From Promethearchaeota archaeon (lineage in GTDB: Archaea > Asgardarchaeota > Lokiarchaeia > Sigyniarchaeales > SOKP01): a DNA stretch of 64,000 nt. The translations under genes and the position numbers were made by a program. The notes beneath the pieces were generated by a model. The model was given only the letters and a program-made list of their open reading frames with translations, was not told the DNA's origin and searched no databases. Positions 49,744 to 59,317 of the stretch are shown piece by piece (positions within the stretch are counted from its first letter, which is position 1; every line of letters begins with the position of its first letter). Location of the stretch: NCBI GenBank assembly GCA_019058295.1, contig JAHPZI010000002.1, positions 1 through 64,000 on the forward strand. The letters are read 5' to 3'.

Positions 49744-50625
49744 ATGGACAATCTAATATTAGAAAAGTTAGAGTTTGAAAAATTCCATGGTTTAGGCAAC
49801 GATTACATAATAATTAACGATATTCAATGGAAAATTCCTGAGAAAAAAAAGTCAGACTTAGCAAAAAAATTATGTGAGATGCATTTCTCAATAGGGGCAG
49901 ATGGTTTAATTTTCGTGGTCAATTCAGATAAAGCTGATATTAAAATGCGCATTTTTAATCCCGATGGTTCGGAATCGGAGATGTGTGGTAATGGGATTAG
50001 ATGCGTTTCGAAATATATATACGAAAATAATATAATTAATAAAAACGAAATAGACATCGAAACTCTAAAGGGTATAATAGTTGCGAGACTTAGAATTATT
50101 GATAGTAAAGTTAACAGCGTAACAATTGACATGGGAGCACCTATATTAGATTGTAAAAATATACCGGTAATTTCACCAGAAAATGAGAGTACTTGTTTAA
50201 GCGAGCCACTTGAGATTTTAGATAGAAAATTTATTTTTTCAGCCGTTTCAATGGGAAATCCACACGCTGTTATTTTTATTGACGAGCAATTAAATGATGA
50301 CGACTTGGAAAAATATGGTGGTGCTATTGAACCACACGAGCGGTTTCCAAATAAAGTAAATGTAGAATTTGTTAAAGTTTTATCTGATACAGAAGCTATA
50401 TTAAGAGTTTATGAAAGGGGGGTAGGTATAACTAAATCTTGTGGTACAGGAACATGCGCATCGGTGGTTGCTGGAACAAAACTAGGAAAATTTAGAGAAA
50501 ATGCACCCATTACTATACATAATGATGGGGGAGATCTAATTATTACTTATACCAGCGATACTGTTCTTATGCAAGGTCCTGTTGAAAAATCTTTTGAAGG
50601 AAAAATAGATTTGATTGAATTATAA
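49744..50625 (+). CDS. dapF: Diaminopimelate epimerase
   Basis: Interconverts LL- and meso-diaminopimelate. Two catalytic cysteines are visible: EMCGNGIRC and KSCGTGTCASV. EKFHGLGNDYIIIN and FNPDGSESE are family blocks. 293 aa, ATG. Followed 24 nt later by lysA; the two form an operon for the last steps of lysine synthesis. Confidence 0.96.
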   Translation: MDNLILEKLEFEKFHGLGNDYIIINDIQWKIPEKKKSDLAKKLCEMHFSIGADGLIFVVNSDKADIKMRIFNPDGSESEMCGNGIRCVSKYIYENNIINKNEIDIETLKGIIVARLRIIDSKVNSVTIDMGAPILDCKNIPVISPENESTCLSEPLEILDRKFIFSAVSMGNPHAVIFIDEQLNDDDLEKYGGAIEPHERFPNKVNVEFVKVLSDTEAILRVYERGVGITKSCGTGTCASVVAGTKLGKFRENAPITIHNDGGDLIITYTSDTVLMQGPVEKSFEGKIDLIEL

Positions 50626-50649
50626 AAAAGTAAATGAGGAAGTTGTAAA

Positions 50650-51966
50650 ATGGATTATGAAGATTGGTTGAAAAGAAAGAGTTTAGAATATCGAAATGAT
50701 ATTCTTTATTTTGCTGAAGTCAATACTATTGAAATTGCTGAGAAGTTTGGCACTCCTATTTATGTTATTAACGAGCAAATGATTCGAAAAAAATATAAAA
50801 AATTAAAAAAAATGCTCGATTCGGCATATAAGAAAAATAGAATCTATTTTGCTATAAAATCTAACTCAAATTTATCAATTTTAAAAATTTTGAATTCAGA
50901 AGGCTCTTATTATGATTGTTCTTCAACTGGAGAGATTTATACTTGTTTTAAGGCAGGTATTGCTCCCGATAGGATAATTTATACAGGAAACATGTTTACT
51001 GATGCTGATTTTGAATTTGCTGTTAAAAATGATGTTTTAGTTAATTTAGATAGCATTAGTCAATTAAAACGATTAGTTAAGGCATATGATAAATTGGGAA
51101 AGGAAAAAGGAATTGTATCTTTCAGGATTAATCCAGAATTCGGAGCTGGTCACCATGTTCACACAATAACAGCAGGAAAAGAGTTAAAATTTGGAATATT
51201 AGATAACCAAGTTATTGAAGCATATTCAAAAGCCATTGATGAGGGAGGATTTAAAAAATTTGGCATTCACCAACACATAGGTTCAGGAATAATAAATCCA
51301 TATGATTTTGAAAAAGCAGCAGAAAAATTTTTATCAATAATAAAGAATTTAACGAGTACTTTAAATATAGATCTTGAATTTATAGATTTTGGGGGAGGGC
51401 TTGGAATTCCTTACCGTCCAGAAGAAGAACCACTTGATTTAAAAACATATAAAGAAGTTGTGATAACTAAATTTAAAGATTTAGTTGGAGAAGGAAATGT
51501 TGGAACCCCTTATCTAATTATTGAACCTGGACGATATATAACGGCTGAAGCAAGCATAATTTTAACTCAAATTAATACTATAAAAAATAATGGACATAAA
51601 TTGTTCGCAGGAGTCAATACTGGATTTAATACATTAATTAGGCCTACAATGTATGGTTCTTATCACCATATTATACTTTGCAATAAAAATTTACGAGAGA
51701 GAAGCTTAAAATATGATGTAACAGGACCTATTTGTGAATCAGGTGATATTCTTGGTAAGAATCGAGAATTACCAGAGTTAGTTGAGGGCGATTATCTTGC
51801 CATACTCGATGCAGGGGCATATGGTTTTACTATGAGTAGTGTATATAATTCACGCCCACGGCCTGCTGAAATCTTACTCAATGATGGTCTCACATACAAG
51901 ATTAGAAAAGAAGAAACTTACGATGACTTGCTAACCCATCAATTTATTCCAGATCATCTGATGTAA
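50650..51966 (+). CDS. lysA: Diaminopimelate decarboxylase
   Basis: PLP fold III decarboxylase that makes lysine from meso-DAP. The PLP lysine sits in RIYFAIKSNSNL, and GIHQHIGSGI, DFGGGLGIPY, EPGRYITAEA, the substrate-site CESGDILGKNRELPELVEGD and DAGAYGFTMSSVYNS are conserved. 438 aa. Faces dapB-dapA across a 233-nt spacer. Confidence 0.96.
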   Translation: MDYEDWLKRKSLEYRNDILYFAEVNTIEIAEKFGTPIYVINEQMIRKKYKKLKKMLDSAYKKNRIYFAIKSNSNLSILKILNSEGSYYDCSSTGEIYTCFKAGIAPDRIIYTGNMFTDADFEFAVKNDVLVNLDSISQLKRLVKAYDKLGKEKGIVSFRINPEFGAGHHVHTITAGKELKFGILDNQVIEAYSKAIDEGGFKKFGIHQHIGSGIINPYDFEKAAEKFLSIIKNLTSTLNIDLEFIDFGGGLGIPYRPEEEPLDLKTYKEVVITKFKDLVGEGNVGTPYLIIEPGRYITAEASIILTQINTIKNNGHKLFAGVNTGFNTLIRPTMYGSYHHIILCNKNLRERSLKYDVTGPICESGDILGKNRELPELVEGDYLAILDAGAYGFTMSSVYNSRPRPAEILLNDGLTYKIRKEETYDDLLTHQFIPDHLM

Positions 51967-52044
51967 TCTCTCAATTACATACCAATCAAAATAAATAAAT
52001 ATTTTCTTTCTCATTCTTATATTAGATAAAATTATAAAAATACG

Positions 52045-52119
52045 ATCGATTAAGGCTTGGATACCCTTTAATCGTTCAAAATGAAGATTAGGCGTAATGA
52101 AATCTGTTTATATACAGAT
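52045..52119 (+). other. Two hairpins between convergent lysA and dapB
   Basis: In the 233-nt gap: hairpin 1 at about 52045-52075, CGATTAAGG against CCTTTAATCG with a GG/CC inner pair; hairpin 2 at about 52098-52119, AATCTGT against ACAGATT around a 6-nt loop. They may end both transcripts, or form part of a small RNA. CTGA occurs twice just after (52131 region) but no complete C/D box set was found. Confidence 0.35.
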
Positions 52120-52199
52120 TAATGAGAATACTGATCTGCCCTGAATATTTTTTATAATTTTATCTTATTTTCTTTTTTAAAAAAAGTATAGTATGAAAT

Positions 52200-53021
52200 T
52201 TACAAATTTAAGACTTCACGCGTATTATATATCTTATTTTCTCTATCATCAGCAATAAATTTTATAGCAATTATAGCACCACTTGCGAAGCAGTTTCGAC
52301 TATGTGCTTGATGCTTAAATTCGATACGTTCGCCTGAACCTGCATATAAGATAATGTGATCACCCACAATATCTCCTGCCCGGATTGAATGAATTCCTAT
52401 TTCATTTTTAGCACCAATCTTTCGCTTATTAGGCCCTTTTGAACGTCCAAATTTCGCTACATCATCAATATTAACCCCAAGAGTTTCACTTATCATCTTA
52501 GCAGTAGTTAGAGCGGTACCACTAGGAGCATCAAGTTTCCTATGATGATGTGCTTCAATGATTTCAATATCCCAATCCTTCAAATATTCGGTCAGAACTG
52601 ACGCCATTTTGAAGAAAATATTAACTCCTGTTGCCATATTTGACGAAATAACGGCTGGTGCATTATATTCTTTTACTTTTTTTTCAAATTCTTCTATAAA
52701 TGAATTGGATAATCCAGTAGTTCCAATCACACATCGAATATTATTTTCTACACAAATCATGCAATTTTTTTCAGAAGCTTCTGCCAATGTAAAATCAACT
52801 GCTACCTCTGGTTTTGTCTCGTCAATTACCTCTTTAATTTCCGTAATATTCCTTATTTTTACATGATTCGGGTCCTTTTTGCCCACTAAAACTCCTAATT
52901 CATCACCTACATTCATTAAATCTAAAGCTGCGACAACATCAATATCCTCATCATCAAAAGCGTGTTGACTGATTAACGTACCCATTGAACCTGTTGGACC
53001 AAAAATTAATATTTTAATCAT
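52200..53021 (-). CDS. dapB: 4-hydroxy-tetrahydrodipicolinate reductase
   Basis: 273 residues. NAD(P)-binding ILIFGPTGSMGTLIS, CVIGTTGLS, catalytic EAHHHRKLDAPSGTAL and the C-terminal GERIEFKHQAHSRNCFASGA. Reduces 4-hydroxy-tetrahydrodipicolinate in the DAP path. 26 nt after dapA on the same strand. Confidence 0.96.
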   Translation of the reverse strand: MIKILIFGPTGSMGTLISQHAFDDEDIDVVAALDLMNVGDELGVLVGKKDPNHVKIRNITEIKEVIDETKPEVAVDFTLAEASEKNCMICVENNIRCVIGTTGLSNSFIEEFEKKVKEYNAPAVISSNMATGVNIFFKMASVLTEYLKDWDIEIIEAHHHRKLDAPSGTALTTAKMISETLGVNIDDVAKFGRSKGPNKRKIGAKNEIGIHSIRAGDIVGDHIILYAGSGERIEFKHQAHSRNCFASGAIIAIKFIADDRENKIYNTREVLNL

Positions 53022-53047
53022 ATCAATTCCCTCTAAAAAGATTATTT

Positions 53048-53956
53048 TTATATTAAATTAAGTTGTTTGAGTACAGCTTTAATTTTTTCGCAATTAGCTT
53101 CTAAAGGAGGCGTTAGCGGCAATCTCATACGCTTATTCATTATACCCATAAGTTCAGCGGAATATTTTACAGGTCCTGGATTTGTTTCAATGAAAAGCAC
53201 TTTAAATAAGTCATATAATTCAAGCTGCATTTTTCTTGCTTTTTCCCAATCTCCGTTATTCATGGTTGTTGTAAATTTATATATTTTAGCGGGAATAATA
53301 TTTGAAGCAACACTAATAACTCCTACTCCGCCTAATGCCATCAAATGATAAGTCATACCATCATCTCCACTTAAAACGATAAAATCATCAGGGGTCATCT
53401 TAATTATTTTTGTTATCTGGTCTATATTACCACTCGCACATTTAATTCCAACTATATTATCTTTTTTTCTTGCTAACGTAGCTACGGTGTCCGGATCCAA
53501 ATTGCGTACTGTACGGCTCGGTACGTTATATAGAATTATTGGAATCGAAACCGAATCTGCAATAGCAGAAAAATGATCTATTAAAGAATGTTGGACTGGT
53601 TTGTTATAATATGGCACTACAACTAAACACCCATCAGCACCAGCTTTTTCAGCATATTGACTAAGTGATATCGCCTCATGAGTCGCATTACTTCCTGTAC
53701 CTACCAATACAAAAGGATCTTTTCCTGATTTTTTAGCCTCATCTACACAGATATCTATTGCCTGATGATGTTCGTCATGTGATAATGTAGCACTTTCTCC
53801 AGTTGTACCCATCGTTAAAGGTTGACAGCCATTTTCGATTTGAAATCTGATAAATTCTCTATATTTTGCATCGTTAATAGAAAAATCTTCATTAAGCGGT
53901 GTTATCATTGCCGTAATGGCATTCCTTAATTTATTTAATTTATTAAATTTTGACAT
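53048..53956 (-). CDS. dapA: 4-hydroxy-tetrahydrodipicolinate synthase
   Basis: Class I aldolase condensing pyruvate and aspartate semialdehyde. GTTGESATLSHDEHHQ, YNVPSRTVRN and the Schiff-base lysine in IVGIKCASGNI are present. 302 aa. Relatives such as KDG aldolase share the fold, but the neighbouring dapB supports DapA. Confidence 0.94.
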   Translation of the reverse strand: MSKFNKLNKLRNAITAMITPLNEDFSINDAKYREFIRFQIENGCQPLTMGTTGESATLSHDEHHQAIDICVDEAKKSGKDPFVLVGTGSNATHEAISLSQYAEKAGADGCLVVVPYYNKPVQHSLIDHFSAIADSVSIPIILYNVPSRTVRNLDPDTVATLARKKDNIVGIKCASGNIDQITKIIKMTPDDFIVLSGDDGMTYHLMALGGVGVISVASNIIPAKIYKFTTTMNNGDWEKARKMQLELYDLFKVLFIETNPGPVKYSAELMGIMNKRMRLPLTPPLEANCEKIKAVLKQLNLI

Positions 53957-54059: not shown

Positions 54060-55334
54060 TTATTTCTTGTTTTTTTTTATTTTTTTTTTAATTAAAAAAC
54101 CCATTTTGCTCTGAAGTCCAAACAGAGGAATAAAGCCATAACTCAAATTTTGATTAAAAGTGCTAGCCGTTTCATAAGTTGCTAAGTTCATATCATATAT
54201 TCCGTAAGGAGATTCCCTTGCTACAACTTCTGCGCTTCCTTTAAATAATTTTACTTTAACACTACCAGTTACTTTTTTGTTTATTTCATTTATAAACGCA
54301 TCTAATGCATCTTTTAAAGGATCAACCCATAATCCCTCATAAGCTAACTCAGACCATCTTTGATCTACCATGTTTTTAAAGGAATTTTCTTGCTTAGTAC
54401 ATACATATTTCTCAAGATCTTTATGCGCTTTAATAAGCATTAATGCCGCAGGAACTTCATAAGTTTCTCTTGATTTTAATCCAATGGCTCGATCTTCCAT
54501 GTGTTCTATTCTTCCAACACCATGCTTACATCCTAAATCGTGTAATGTTCTTAATAAGTCAATACTACTCATCTTTTCCCCATTTAAGCCTACTGGAACC
54601 CCTTCTTCAAAATTAATAGTTATATATTCGGGCTCATTGGGAGCCTTCTCAGGAGCAATTGTCCATTCTCTCGAATCTTCAGGTGGTTCAATTTCTGGGT
54701 GTTCTAAAATATCACATTCTGCACTTCTTCCAAAGAGATTCTCATCAATGCTATATTTCTTATATTTATTGACTGGAATACCATGTCTTTCTGCGTATTT
54801 GACTTCCTCATCTCGCCCCATATTCCATTCAATTAAGGGTTGTAATACCTCGATTTCTGGAGCGTACGCATTTGCTGTAATATTTATTCTAATCTGATCG
54901 TTTCCTTTCCCAGTACACCCATGTGCTACTACGGAAATTCCTTCCTTTTTAGCAATTTTAATAGCTTCTATAGCAATTAAAGGTCTCCCTACGGCAGTGC
55001 TTAACGGATATATCCCTTGATATAACCCATTGGCTTTAATTGCAGGAAAAACATAGTCTTTTACAAATCTTTCTTTTAAATCTACTGTGTAATGTTTAAC
55101 AGCACCTAATTTATACGCTTTTTCTTCAATTTCTTTAAACCTTGTTGGATCAGCAAATTCTTGACCTAAATCAGCTGTAAATGTATAGACTTTGGCGCTA
55201 TATGTTTCTTGAAGCCACTTAATCATGCAGGAAGTGTTTGATCATATATACATCAATTGTATATATTCTAATCCTCCTGAATACATTAATAAAATCTTAT
55301 CATACTTATCCTTTTTGGGTCCTAATTGATTCAT
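54060..55334 (-). CDS. argG: Argininosuccinate synthase interrupted by a 30-nt intron-like insert; join(54060..55237,55268..55334)
   Basis: Joins citrulline and aspartate with ATP in arginine synthesis. The downstream part is a good ArgG from MIKWLQETYSAKVYTFTADLGQ onward (PLSTAVGRPLIA, GCTGKGNDQIRI). Its essential N-terminal PP-loop is encoded upstream in the same frame from ATG at 55334 (ILLMYSGGL) but is separated by 30 nt (55238-55267) carrying an in-frame TGA. Removing the 30 nt gives SGGLDTSCMIKWL and a 414-residue protein of normal archaeal length. The insert has BHB features (see its own entry). Weak ribosome binding site (GATGATGG) before the ATG. Confidence 0.87.
55238..55267 (-). 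other. Putative BHB-type intron in argG
   Basis: 30 nt on the minus strand, bounded by TTAG before and ACACTT after. Inside, ATATATACA (55266-55258) and TGTATATAT (55252-55244) form a 9-bp stem with a 5-nt loop. Flanking it, GATT (55273-55270) pairs with GATC (55243-55240), leaving 3-nt bulges AGA (55269-55267) and AAA (55239-55237) on opposite strands. Cleavage between the second and third bulge bases, the archaeal splicing-endonuclease rule, removes exactly these 30 nt. The outer exon helix is weak in this register (G-C, A-A, G-C, G-U, A-U); an alternative CAGGAG/TTCCTG pairing is stronger but widens the 3' bulge. Confidence 0.75.
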
Positions 55335-59215: not shown

Positions 59216-59317
59216 GGGAGGGTGGTCTAGCTTGGTATGATTCCTGGTTTGGGACTTCAAACAGAAAGCTTGGAGCAAAACACCAGGAGGCCGGGGGTTC
59301 GAATCCCCCCCCTCCCA
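59216..59317 (+). tRNA. tRNA-Pro (TGG) with 28-nt BHB intron
   Basis: Acceptor GGGAGGG/CCCTCCC with discriminator A, D arm, anticodon stem CCTGG/CCAGG, loop TTTGGGA (anticodon TGG), T arm GGGGG-TTCGAAT-CCCCC. The canonical 37/38 intron is 59254-59281: centre helix TTTG/CAAA, bulges GGA and ACA, inner helix CTTC/GGAG. Cutting after the second bulge base gives a normal seven-base loop. CCA is not encoded. Confidence 0.95.
59254..59281 (+). other. tRNA-Pro intron
   Basis: 28 nt at the canonical position after base 37. Perfect BHB: 4-bp centre, two 3-nt bulges on opposite strands. Shows the genome uses the splicing endonuclease, and gives a local standard for the argG insert. Confidence 0.9.

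What the first reader, a model, noticed from the sequence alone, without database searches (positions are those of the whole stretch)
55238..55267. 30-nt BHB-like intron inside argG, in the PP-loop motif
Directly seen: the frame reads ILLMYSGGL, then 30 nt with an in-frame TGA, then TSCMIKWL. Deleting 55238-55267 restores SGGLDTSC exactly. The insert folds into a 9-bp stem flanked by a 4-bp helix (GATT/GATC) and two 3-nt bulges (AGA, AAA). Cutting between bulge bases 2 and 3 gives just this deletion, the same geometry as the tRNA-Pro intron at 59254-59281. Established: the archaeal splicing endonuclease removes BHB introns from tRNA, rRNA and a few mRNAs (cbf5 in Thermoproteota). Inference: argG mRNA is spliced here. 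Introns in protein genes are rare in archaea, and one in a core biosynthetic gene would be notable.
Basis: partly seen in the sequence, partly recalled or inferred. Interest (0 to 1): 0.94.

Follow-up and report, generated by a model that had tools for sequence, protein, structure and literature searches.

The report
Tiny mRNA introns in Lokiarchaeal genes
In what is likely a lokiarchaeon, one of the archaea thought to be closest to eukaryotes, the gene for the arginine-making enzyme ArgG is interrupted by a 30-letter hairpin that is likely cut out of the messenger RNA; hairpins of the same build interrupt three genes in related species, so message splicing would be needed there to make enzymes as basic as leucyl-tRNA synthetase.

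Summary
argG (minus strand, 54060-55334) is broken at 55238-55267 by 30 nt with an in-frame TGA; removing it restores SGGLDTSC, and the flanks can pair as a bulge-helix-bulge (BHB) cut exactly there. It is not an assembly slip: 7 of 19 full argG genes in this family of (by its neighbours) Ca. Lokiarchaeota carry an insert at the same splice point, 0 of 26 elsewhere in the phylum; six are 30 nt with compensated stems, one is unlike the rest, 32 nt, and breaks the frame. Following it outward I found inserts of the same build in leuS (three sites, 10 of 61 gene copies) and in a YchF-related GTPase (two P-loop sites, 7 of 42). All 25, at six sites in three genes, have a 4-bp central helix and two 3-nt bulges at a cut that restores the conserved residues; of 80 shifted registers only two keep this in more than one case. 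All 13 genomes searched have a splicing endonuclease gene, 11 at least two. Splicing itself is inferred: there is no RNA evidence, and RNAfold prefers the exact BHB in only 12 of 25. It would work like the known cbf5 intron; hosts, genes, sites and patchy presence look new in the papers I could search.

The parts
55268..55334 (-). argG exon 1: ATG (55334-55332) to the first base of the Asp codon of SGGLD
   Evidence: Read; orthologues of 414 aa start at the same Met (P0002)
55238..55267 (-). 30-nt insert, predicted BHB intron, with an in-frame TGA
   Evidence: same point in six other genomes
54060..55237 (-). argG exon 2, from AC of the Asp codon to the stop; the listed frame starts at the Met at 55226 (388 aa)
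   Evidence: argininosuccinate synthase models NF001770, TIGR00032
55270..55273 (-). 5' strand of the 4-bp central helix (GATT, exon 1)
   Evidence: 24 of 24 cells paired over six genomes
55240..55243 (-). 3' strand of the central helix (GATC, intron)
55267..55269 (-). bulge 1 (AG^A), predicted 5' cut between 55268 and 55267
55237..55239 (-). bulge 2 (AA^A), predicted 3' cut between 55238 and 55237
55258..55266 (-). 5' arm of the 9-bp intron stem
   Evidence: 54 of 54 cells paired, three pairs with two-sided changes
55244..55252 (-). 3' arm of the 9-bp intron stem
59216..59317 (+). tRNA-Pro gene (anticodon read by eye as UGG) with an intron at 59254-59281 of the same BHB geometry: suggests that the host splices BHB introns

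Best explanation
The 30 nt at 55238-55267 (minus strand) interrupt argG inside its SGGLD motif codons and can pair with exon 1 as a bulge-helix-bulge, so they are very likely an intron that the host's splicing endonuclease would cut out of the argG message, after which an RNA ligase would rejoin the exons. Shown here: the insert, the same insert point in seven genomes, its pairing and covariation, and the same build at five further sites in two more genes. Inferred: transcription of the whole, cleavage between bulge bases 2 and 3 at both sites by a two-subunit endonuclease, ligation (RtcB was found in 8 of 11 genomes checked, not in the window's own), and that only spliced message makes a working enzyme. 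Also inferred: intron-bearing and intron-less alleles have replaced each other repeatedly within this family, so the introns are gained, lost or exchanged often while the site stays fixed.
For: (1) Same splice point in 7 of 19 full argG genes of the family and 0 of 26 others in the phylum (my count of rows with E below 1e-50; intact ones outside the fetched loci judged by no stops and a match starting at 1-3 in the table). Of 80 loci kept from named genomes 79 are uninterrupted at this motif; the exception, L078, is G010. (2) Over six genomes the intron stem is paired in 54/54 and the central helix in 24/24 cells, three pairs changed on both sides; pairing is 95.4% against 20-60% when slid. 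(3) G010 has an unlike 32-nt insert that breaks the frame, cut by the same rule at the same point. (4) The Asp codon is GAC in 7 of 7 intron genes and 4 of 18 intron-less (p 7e-4, relatedness not corrected); its C pairs in the outer helix. (5) 25 of 25 inserts in argG, leuS and ychF have a full 4-bp central helix with 3-nt bulges at a cut restoring the protein motif; for nine of them the protein allows only one cut. Of 80 other cut registers, 78 give 0 or 1 of 25; the two that slide the cuts in opposite directions by one give 8 and 6. (6) Endonuclease: at least two family genes in 11 of 13 genomes including the window's, one in G001 and G002. In the window's genome one keeps a Tyr, His and Lys that align with solved enzymes, the other lacks the His (that these are the catalytic residues is recalled). 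(7) In genomes 98-100% complete the only copy found of leuS (G007) or ychF (G004, G022) is the interrupted one.
Against: No RNA evidence. RNAfold's best structure holds the whole central helix in 12 of 25 and in only 1 of 7 argG cases; its probability is 0.00-0.22 in the other six. G020's central helix has three wobble pairs of four, and G010's intron stem fits only with an asymmetric loop: its shuffle test is weak, 293 of 20000. In one search the number of further pair types does not exceed shuffles (457 of 500 as high), and the shuffles ignore relatedness. RtcB was not found in G000, G002 or G015. BHB-like pairing alone is common in this AT-rich DNA: 1720 strict hits in 1.24 Mb against 1568-1644 in simulated sequence, so the case rests on homology and position.
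Confidence: 0.93

Rival explanations
1. Translational bypassing: the insert stays in the message and ribosomes hop over it, as in phage T4 gene 60 or yeast mitochondrial byps (both recalled).
For: 17 of 25 inserts are multiples of three, 15 of them 30 nt, and the inserts are short hairpins, many with stops.
Against: A hop of ten whole codons in argG would put Asn (G000, G003, G004, G007) or Tyr (G020) where the intact relatives read have Asp (frames), whereas the BHB cut gives Asp in all seven. G030 argG and the 30-nt leuS site-1 inserts would not tell the two apart by this test. Eight of 25 inserts are not multiples of three. Pairing between exon and intron next to 3-nt bulges has no known role in hopping (recalled).
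Confidence: 0.03
2. Decay or artefact: argG is a pseudogene, or the insert is an assembly or sequencing error.
For: These look like metagenome assemblies; the window's genome is 79% complete.
Against: The same insert point in seven species-level genomes with compensated stems and long intact downstream frames; similar inserts in leuS, an essential gene (recalled), as the only copy found in a 98% complete genome. Thermosome and RpoB matches in the same family show no internal stops.
Confidence: 0.02
3. The insert is a regulatory element: unspliced message is the main form and gives a short peptide or a protein restarted at the Met after TSC, with splicing minor or absent.
For: A 388-aa frame starts at that Met; 25 of the 120 nearest database proteins start there (24) or a few residues before it (P0045).
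Against: Those starts are probably gene-caller output. The restarted protein would lack the SGGxD motif that 94 of the 120 keep. leuS and ychF inserts would remove motifs in the same way.
Confidence: 0.02

Closest known systems
cbf5 pre-mRNA intron of Desulfurococcales and Sulfolobales (Thermoproteota)
   Same: Intron in a protein gene, BHB-like motif, predicted cut between second and third bulge residues at the expected border, hetero-oligomeric splicing endonuclease, patchy presence with losses (PMC2738675: abstract, background and the first of two parts of the results read).
   Different: Other phylum and other genes; here three genes and six sites, introns of 28-47 nt, all in strongly conserved motifs. 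The TruB_N part of cbf5 has no internal stop in the 11 of 12 genomes of this family where it was found. cDNA supports cbf5 splicing, nothing yet does here.
Archaeal tRNA introns cut by the splicing endonuclease (e.g. tRNA-Pro at 59216-59317)
   Same: Same geometry: 4-bp central helix, two 3-nt bulges, cut between bases 2 and 3.
   Different: In a message; no tRNA body.
Translational bypass elements (T4 gene 60, mitochondrial byps; recalled)
   Same: Short in-gene hairpins, many with stops.
   Different: In five of seven argG genes the hop product would not match the conserved protein; eight of 25 inserts break the frame.
Group I and group II introns in archaea (PMC6125680, search listing with the start of the abstract only)
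   Same: Introns in archaea.
   Different: 28-47 nt is far too short for such a ribozyme (recalled sizes); the only Rfam match at gathering threshold in the window is the tRNA.

Membership tests
[quoted passage not shown]
   25 of 25 inserts at the chosen register; weak in argG of G020 and G010
[quoted passage not shown]
   25 of 25; nine have a single cut that the protein allows
[quoted passage not shown]
   argG only: three stem pairs with two-sided changes, stem and central helix 100% paired in six genomes; the central helix varies only on one side of a pair at a time
[quoted passage not shown]
   Whole central helix in the MFE of 12 of 25; 7 of 7 ychF, 4 of 11 leuS, 1 of 7 argG
[quoted passage not shown]
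   Window genome: catalytic-type gene (C1:121142) and a partner without the His (C26:58847); assembly as a heteromer not tested
[quoted passage not shown]
   RtcB in 8 of 11 genomes, not in G000 (79% complete), G002 or G015
[quoted passage not shown]
   No transcript data
[quoted passage not shown]
   Experiment
Translational bypass element | Hopping by whole codons gives the conserved protein | tested here: not met
   argG product would have N or Y for D in five of seven genomes (frames)

The most novel reading that the evidence does not exclude
Lokiarchaeota carry a spreading class of mostly 30-nt BHB mini-introns that settle in the most conserved motif codons of core genes (PP-loop of argG, P-loop of a YchF-related GTPase, conserved N-terminal motifs of leucyl-tRNA synthetase), are repeatedly gained, lost or swapped at fixed sites, and make endonuclease-type mRNA splicing indispensable in archaeal relatives of eukaryotes.
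Probability: 0.5. Interest if true: 0.95.

Novelty: new variant of a known kind. Interest (0 to 1): 0.87.

Why it matters
In the papers I saw, the established intron in archaeal protein genes is that of one gene, cbf5, in one phylum (I faintly recall RNA-seq reports of a few others, not found in these searches). Here three genes at six sites are interrupted in one Asgard family, leuS among them. If spliced, messages there depend on a tRNA-type splicing enzyme for basic proteins, and gene callers truncate them: 25 of the 120 nearest ArgG records start behind the motif. Patchy presence at fixed sites makes intron gain, loss and exchange in archaea directly testable, in the group thought closest to eukaryotes.

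Tried and rejected
Loose BHB plus frame-fusion screen of 444 kb of the window's genome: by summed frame length there was some excess at the true register (98 against 72-82 at 300 codons or more), but by gain over the unspliced frames there was none (39 against 37-49 at eight shifted registers for 50 codons or more), so I drew nothing from it. Pairwise tblastn survey of 1.24 Mb (444 kb G000, 400 kb G020, 400 kb G001; 888 frames): no split-hit candidate, four gap-plus-stop cases judged unconvincing by eye and not followed. Strict BHB scan of the same DNA: 1720 hits, little above simulated sequence; among 83 kept rows I recognised two by their motifs, argG and the GTPase; the others were only looked at by eye. 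An MetRS-like hit in G014 flagged with TAG stops has its stop at the very start of the match, probably before the gene. Ideas dropped: intein (stops inside), stop-codon recoding (TAA, TGA and TAG occur, some lengths break the frame), group I or II intron (too short). Thermosome (40 of 41 genomes matched) and RpoB (63 of 65): no internal stops among the listed matches; partial matches not examined. The gene trees are quick ones without bootstrap. Nine paper searches listed no title or abstract start that reports an Asgard protein-gene intron; the library lacks most subscription papers and all preprints.

Full report
Observation. argG lies on the minus strand of the window. Its frame is open from an ATG at 55334 to SGGL, is broken by 30 nt at 55238-55267 that contain an in-frame TGA, and goes on with TSCMIKWL to the stop at 54060. 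Removing the 30 nt gives codons TCA GGA GGA TTA GAC ACT TCC, SGGLDTS. GATT of exon 1 pairs with GATC near the intron's 3' end; the bulges are AGA and AAA; the stem has 9 bp; cutting between bulge bases 2 and 3 removes exactly these 30 nt. The tRNA-Pro gene at 59216-59317 has a 28-nt intron with the same geometry.

Not an accident of one assembly. A search of 58 genomes (the window's own and relatives) found argG genes with a 30-nt insert and stops in G000, G003, G004 (same genus), G007, G020 and G030 (three other genera). A seventh, G010, first looked merely shortened; its DNA shows a 32-nt insert of unlike sequence at the same splice point, which breaks the frame. Over the phylum (227 genomes) I count 45 full-length matches (E below 1e-50): 7 of 19 in this family carry the insert and 0 of 26 outside it, those not fetched being judged from the table. 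Only one full argG match was found in the window's genome, which is 79% complete.

Structure under selection. Over the six 30-nt inserts the intron stem is paired in 54 of 54 cells, the central exon-intron helix in 24 of 24, the outer helix in 25 of 30; three stem pairs changed on both sides; sliding the partners drops pairing from 95% to 20-60%. Four of the five measures exceed nearly all shuffles, the count of further pair types does not. The central helix varies only on one side at a time, so it is kept rather than shown to covary. The Asp codon is GAC in 7 of 7 intron genes and 4 of 18 intron-less ones, and its C pairs with the G before GATT in the outer helix. Against this, the free RNA does not clearly prefer the exact BHB: the alternative is 2 kcal/mol better in G000, and across all 25 inserts RNAfold's best structure holds the whole central helix in 12 (7 of 7 GTPase, 4 of 11 leuS, 1 of 7 argG).

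A second gene. A search for a synthetase domain (PF00133) in seven genomes showed one broken gene in G007. It is leuS-like, with a 31-nt insert; the BHB rule gives PMGYDSFG, the residues of the orthologues. Nine copies have an insert at PMGYD^SFG, one of them also at YYK^WDQW, and one (G018) at MPAE^NAAI with 28 nt. Ser is AGC in all nine site-1 intron copies and TCN in all 14 loci without that insert that I could read, of 16 tried (two did not match my pattern), so intron and intron-less forms differ in more than the insert. G153 and G018 also have an uninterrupted copy. Phylum-wide, 70 of 227 genomes gave a match at 1e-40; interrupted ones lie only in this family, and the 14 genomes outside it show none.

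A third gene. A strict scan of 1.24 Mb brought up a 31-nt insert in G001 whose removal gives IVGKPSSGKSTFLNAACL, the P-loop of a YchF-related GTPase (motif names here and for argG are recalled). Of 42 orthologous matches in 65 family genomes, seven are interrupted: G001, G002, G004 at GKPS^SGKS (31-32 nt) and G009, G017, G022, G026 at VVGK^PSSGKS (45-47 nt). Twenty-nine of the other 35 were read as intact; six were taken as intact from the search table. Two weak G021 rows were dropped.

All together. 25 inserts at six sites in three genes were tested with one rule: each has a full 4-bp central helix and two 3-nt bulges at a cut that the conserved protein allows; in nine the protein allows a single cut. 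For inserts with several allowed cuts I took the best-pairing one, which favours the rule there. Fifteen inserts are exactly 30 nt. At this register 25 of 25 have the central helix and 24 also at least 6 of the first 9 stem pairs; moving the two cuts by up to four bases in the 80 other combinations gives 0 or 1 of 25 for the central helix, except opposite one-base slides, with 8 and 6. Shuffled inserts do as well in 0-9 of 20000 trials for five representatives of leuS and ychF, 293 of 20000 for G010 argG, and 75-120 of 200000 have the central helix and a stem of 6 for the other six argG inserts. Controls: no internal stops in listed matches to thermosome (40 of 41 genomes matched), RpoB (63 of 65) and the TruB_N part of cbf5 (11 of 12).

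Machinery. The window's genome has two genes of the splicing endonuclease family. The first aligns over 174 residues with an archaeal splicing endonuclease of known structure and keeps a Tyr, His and Lys at the positions I recall as catalytic; the second lacks the His. That suggests the two-subunit type, which PMC2738675 ties to cbf5 splicing; PMC12397907 (passages) classifies the subunit types. RtcB was found in 8 of 11 genomes, not in the window's own.

Evolution. On a tree of 131 ArgG proteins the intron label needs 18 changes, 14 forced by well-supported branches, but 22 of the 29 intron labels rest on database proteins that start at or near the Met after the motif, not on DNA. With the seven DNA-verified cases alone it needs five. 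Some apparent intron-less records on short contigs could even be cDNA; I could not check. So the introns come and go, or alleles are exchanged, at fixed sites. How they arise is open.

Verdict. The insert is very likely a BHB intron of an mRNA, working like the cbf5 intron; of the six defining features tested, four are met and two are inconclusive (folding preference, ligase). What appears new, within nine searches of an open-access library, is its presence in Asgard archaea, in three genes, as mini-introns in motif codons. RNA evidence is the missing step.

Noticed in passing
window 59216-59317: ARAGORN found no tRNA in the window while Rfam found the intron-bearing tRNA-Pro: the tool as run missed it.
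   Followed up: partly
P0031, P0048, P0018, P0021 and others: Database records named argininosuccinate synthase lack the SGGxD motif, probably because the gene caller started after the intron; P0045 starts inside what looks like a G010-type intron.
   Followed up: partly
G015: No RtcB match in a genome rated 99% complete; also none in G000 and G002. Which ligase joins tRNA exons there is unclear.
   Followed up: no
G153 and G018 leuS; G024 leuS on C316 and C381: Two leuS copies in one genome, one interrupted and one intact (G153, G018) or both interrupted (G024): duplicates, strain mixture or contamination.
   Followed up: no
L238 (G024): One leuS gene carries two predicted introns, at PMGYD^SFG and YYK^WDQW.
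   Followed up: yes
window 49744-53956: Next to argG lie genes that look like dapF, lysA, dapB and dapA (names from reading the translations, recalled, not searched).
   Followed up: no
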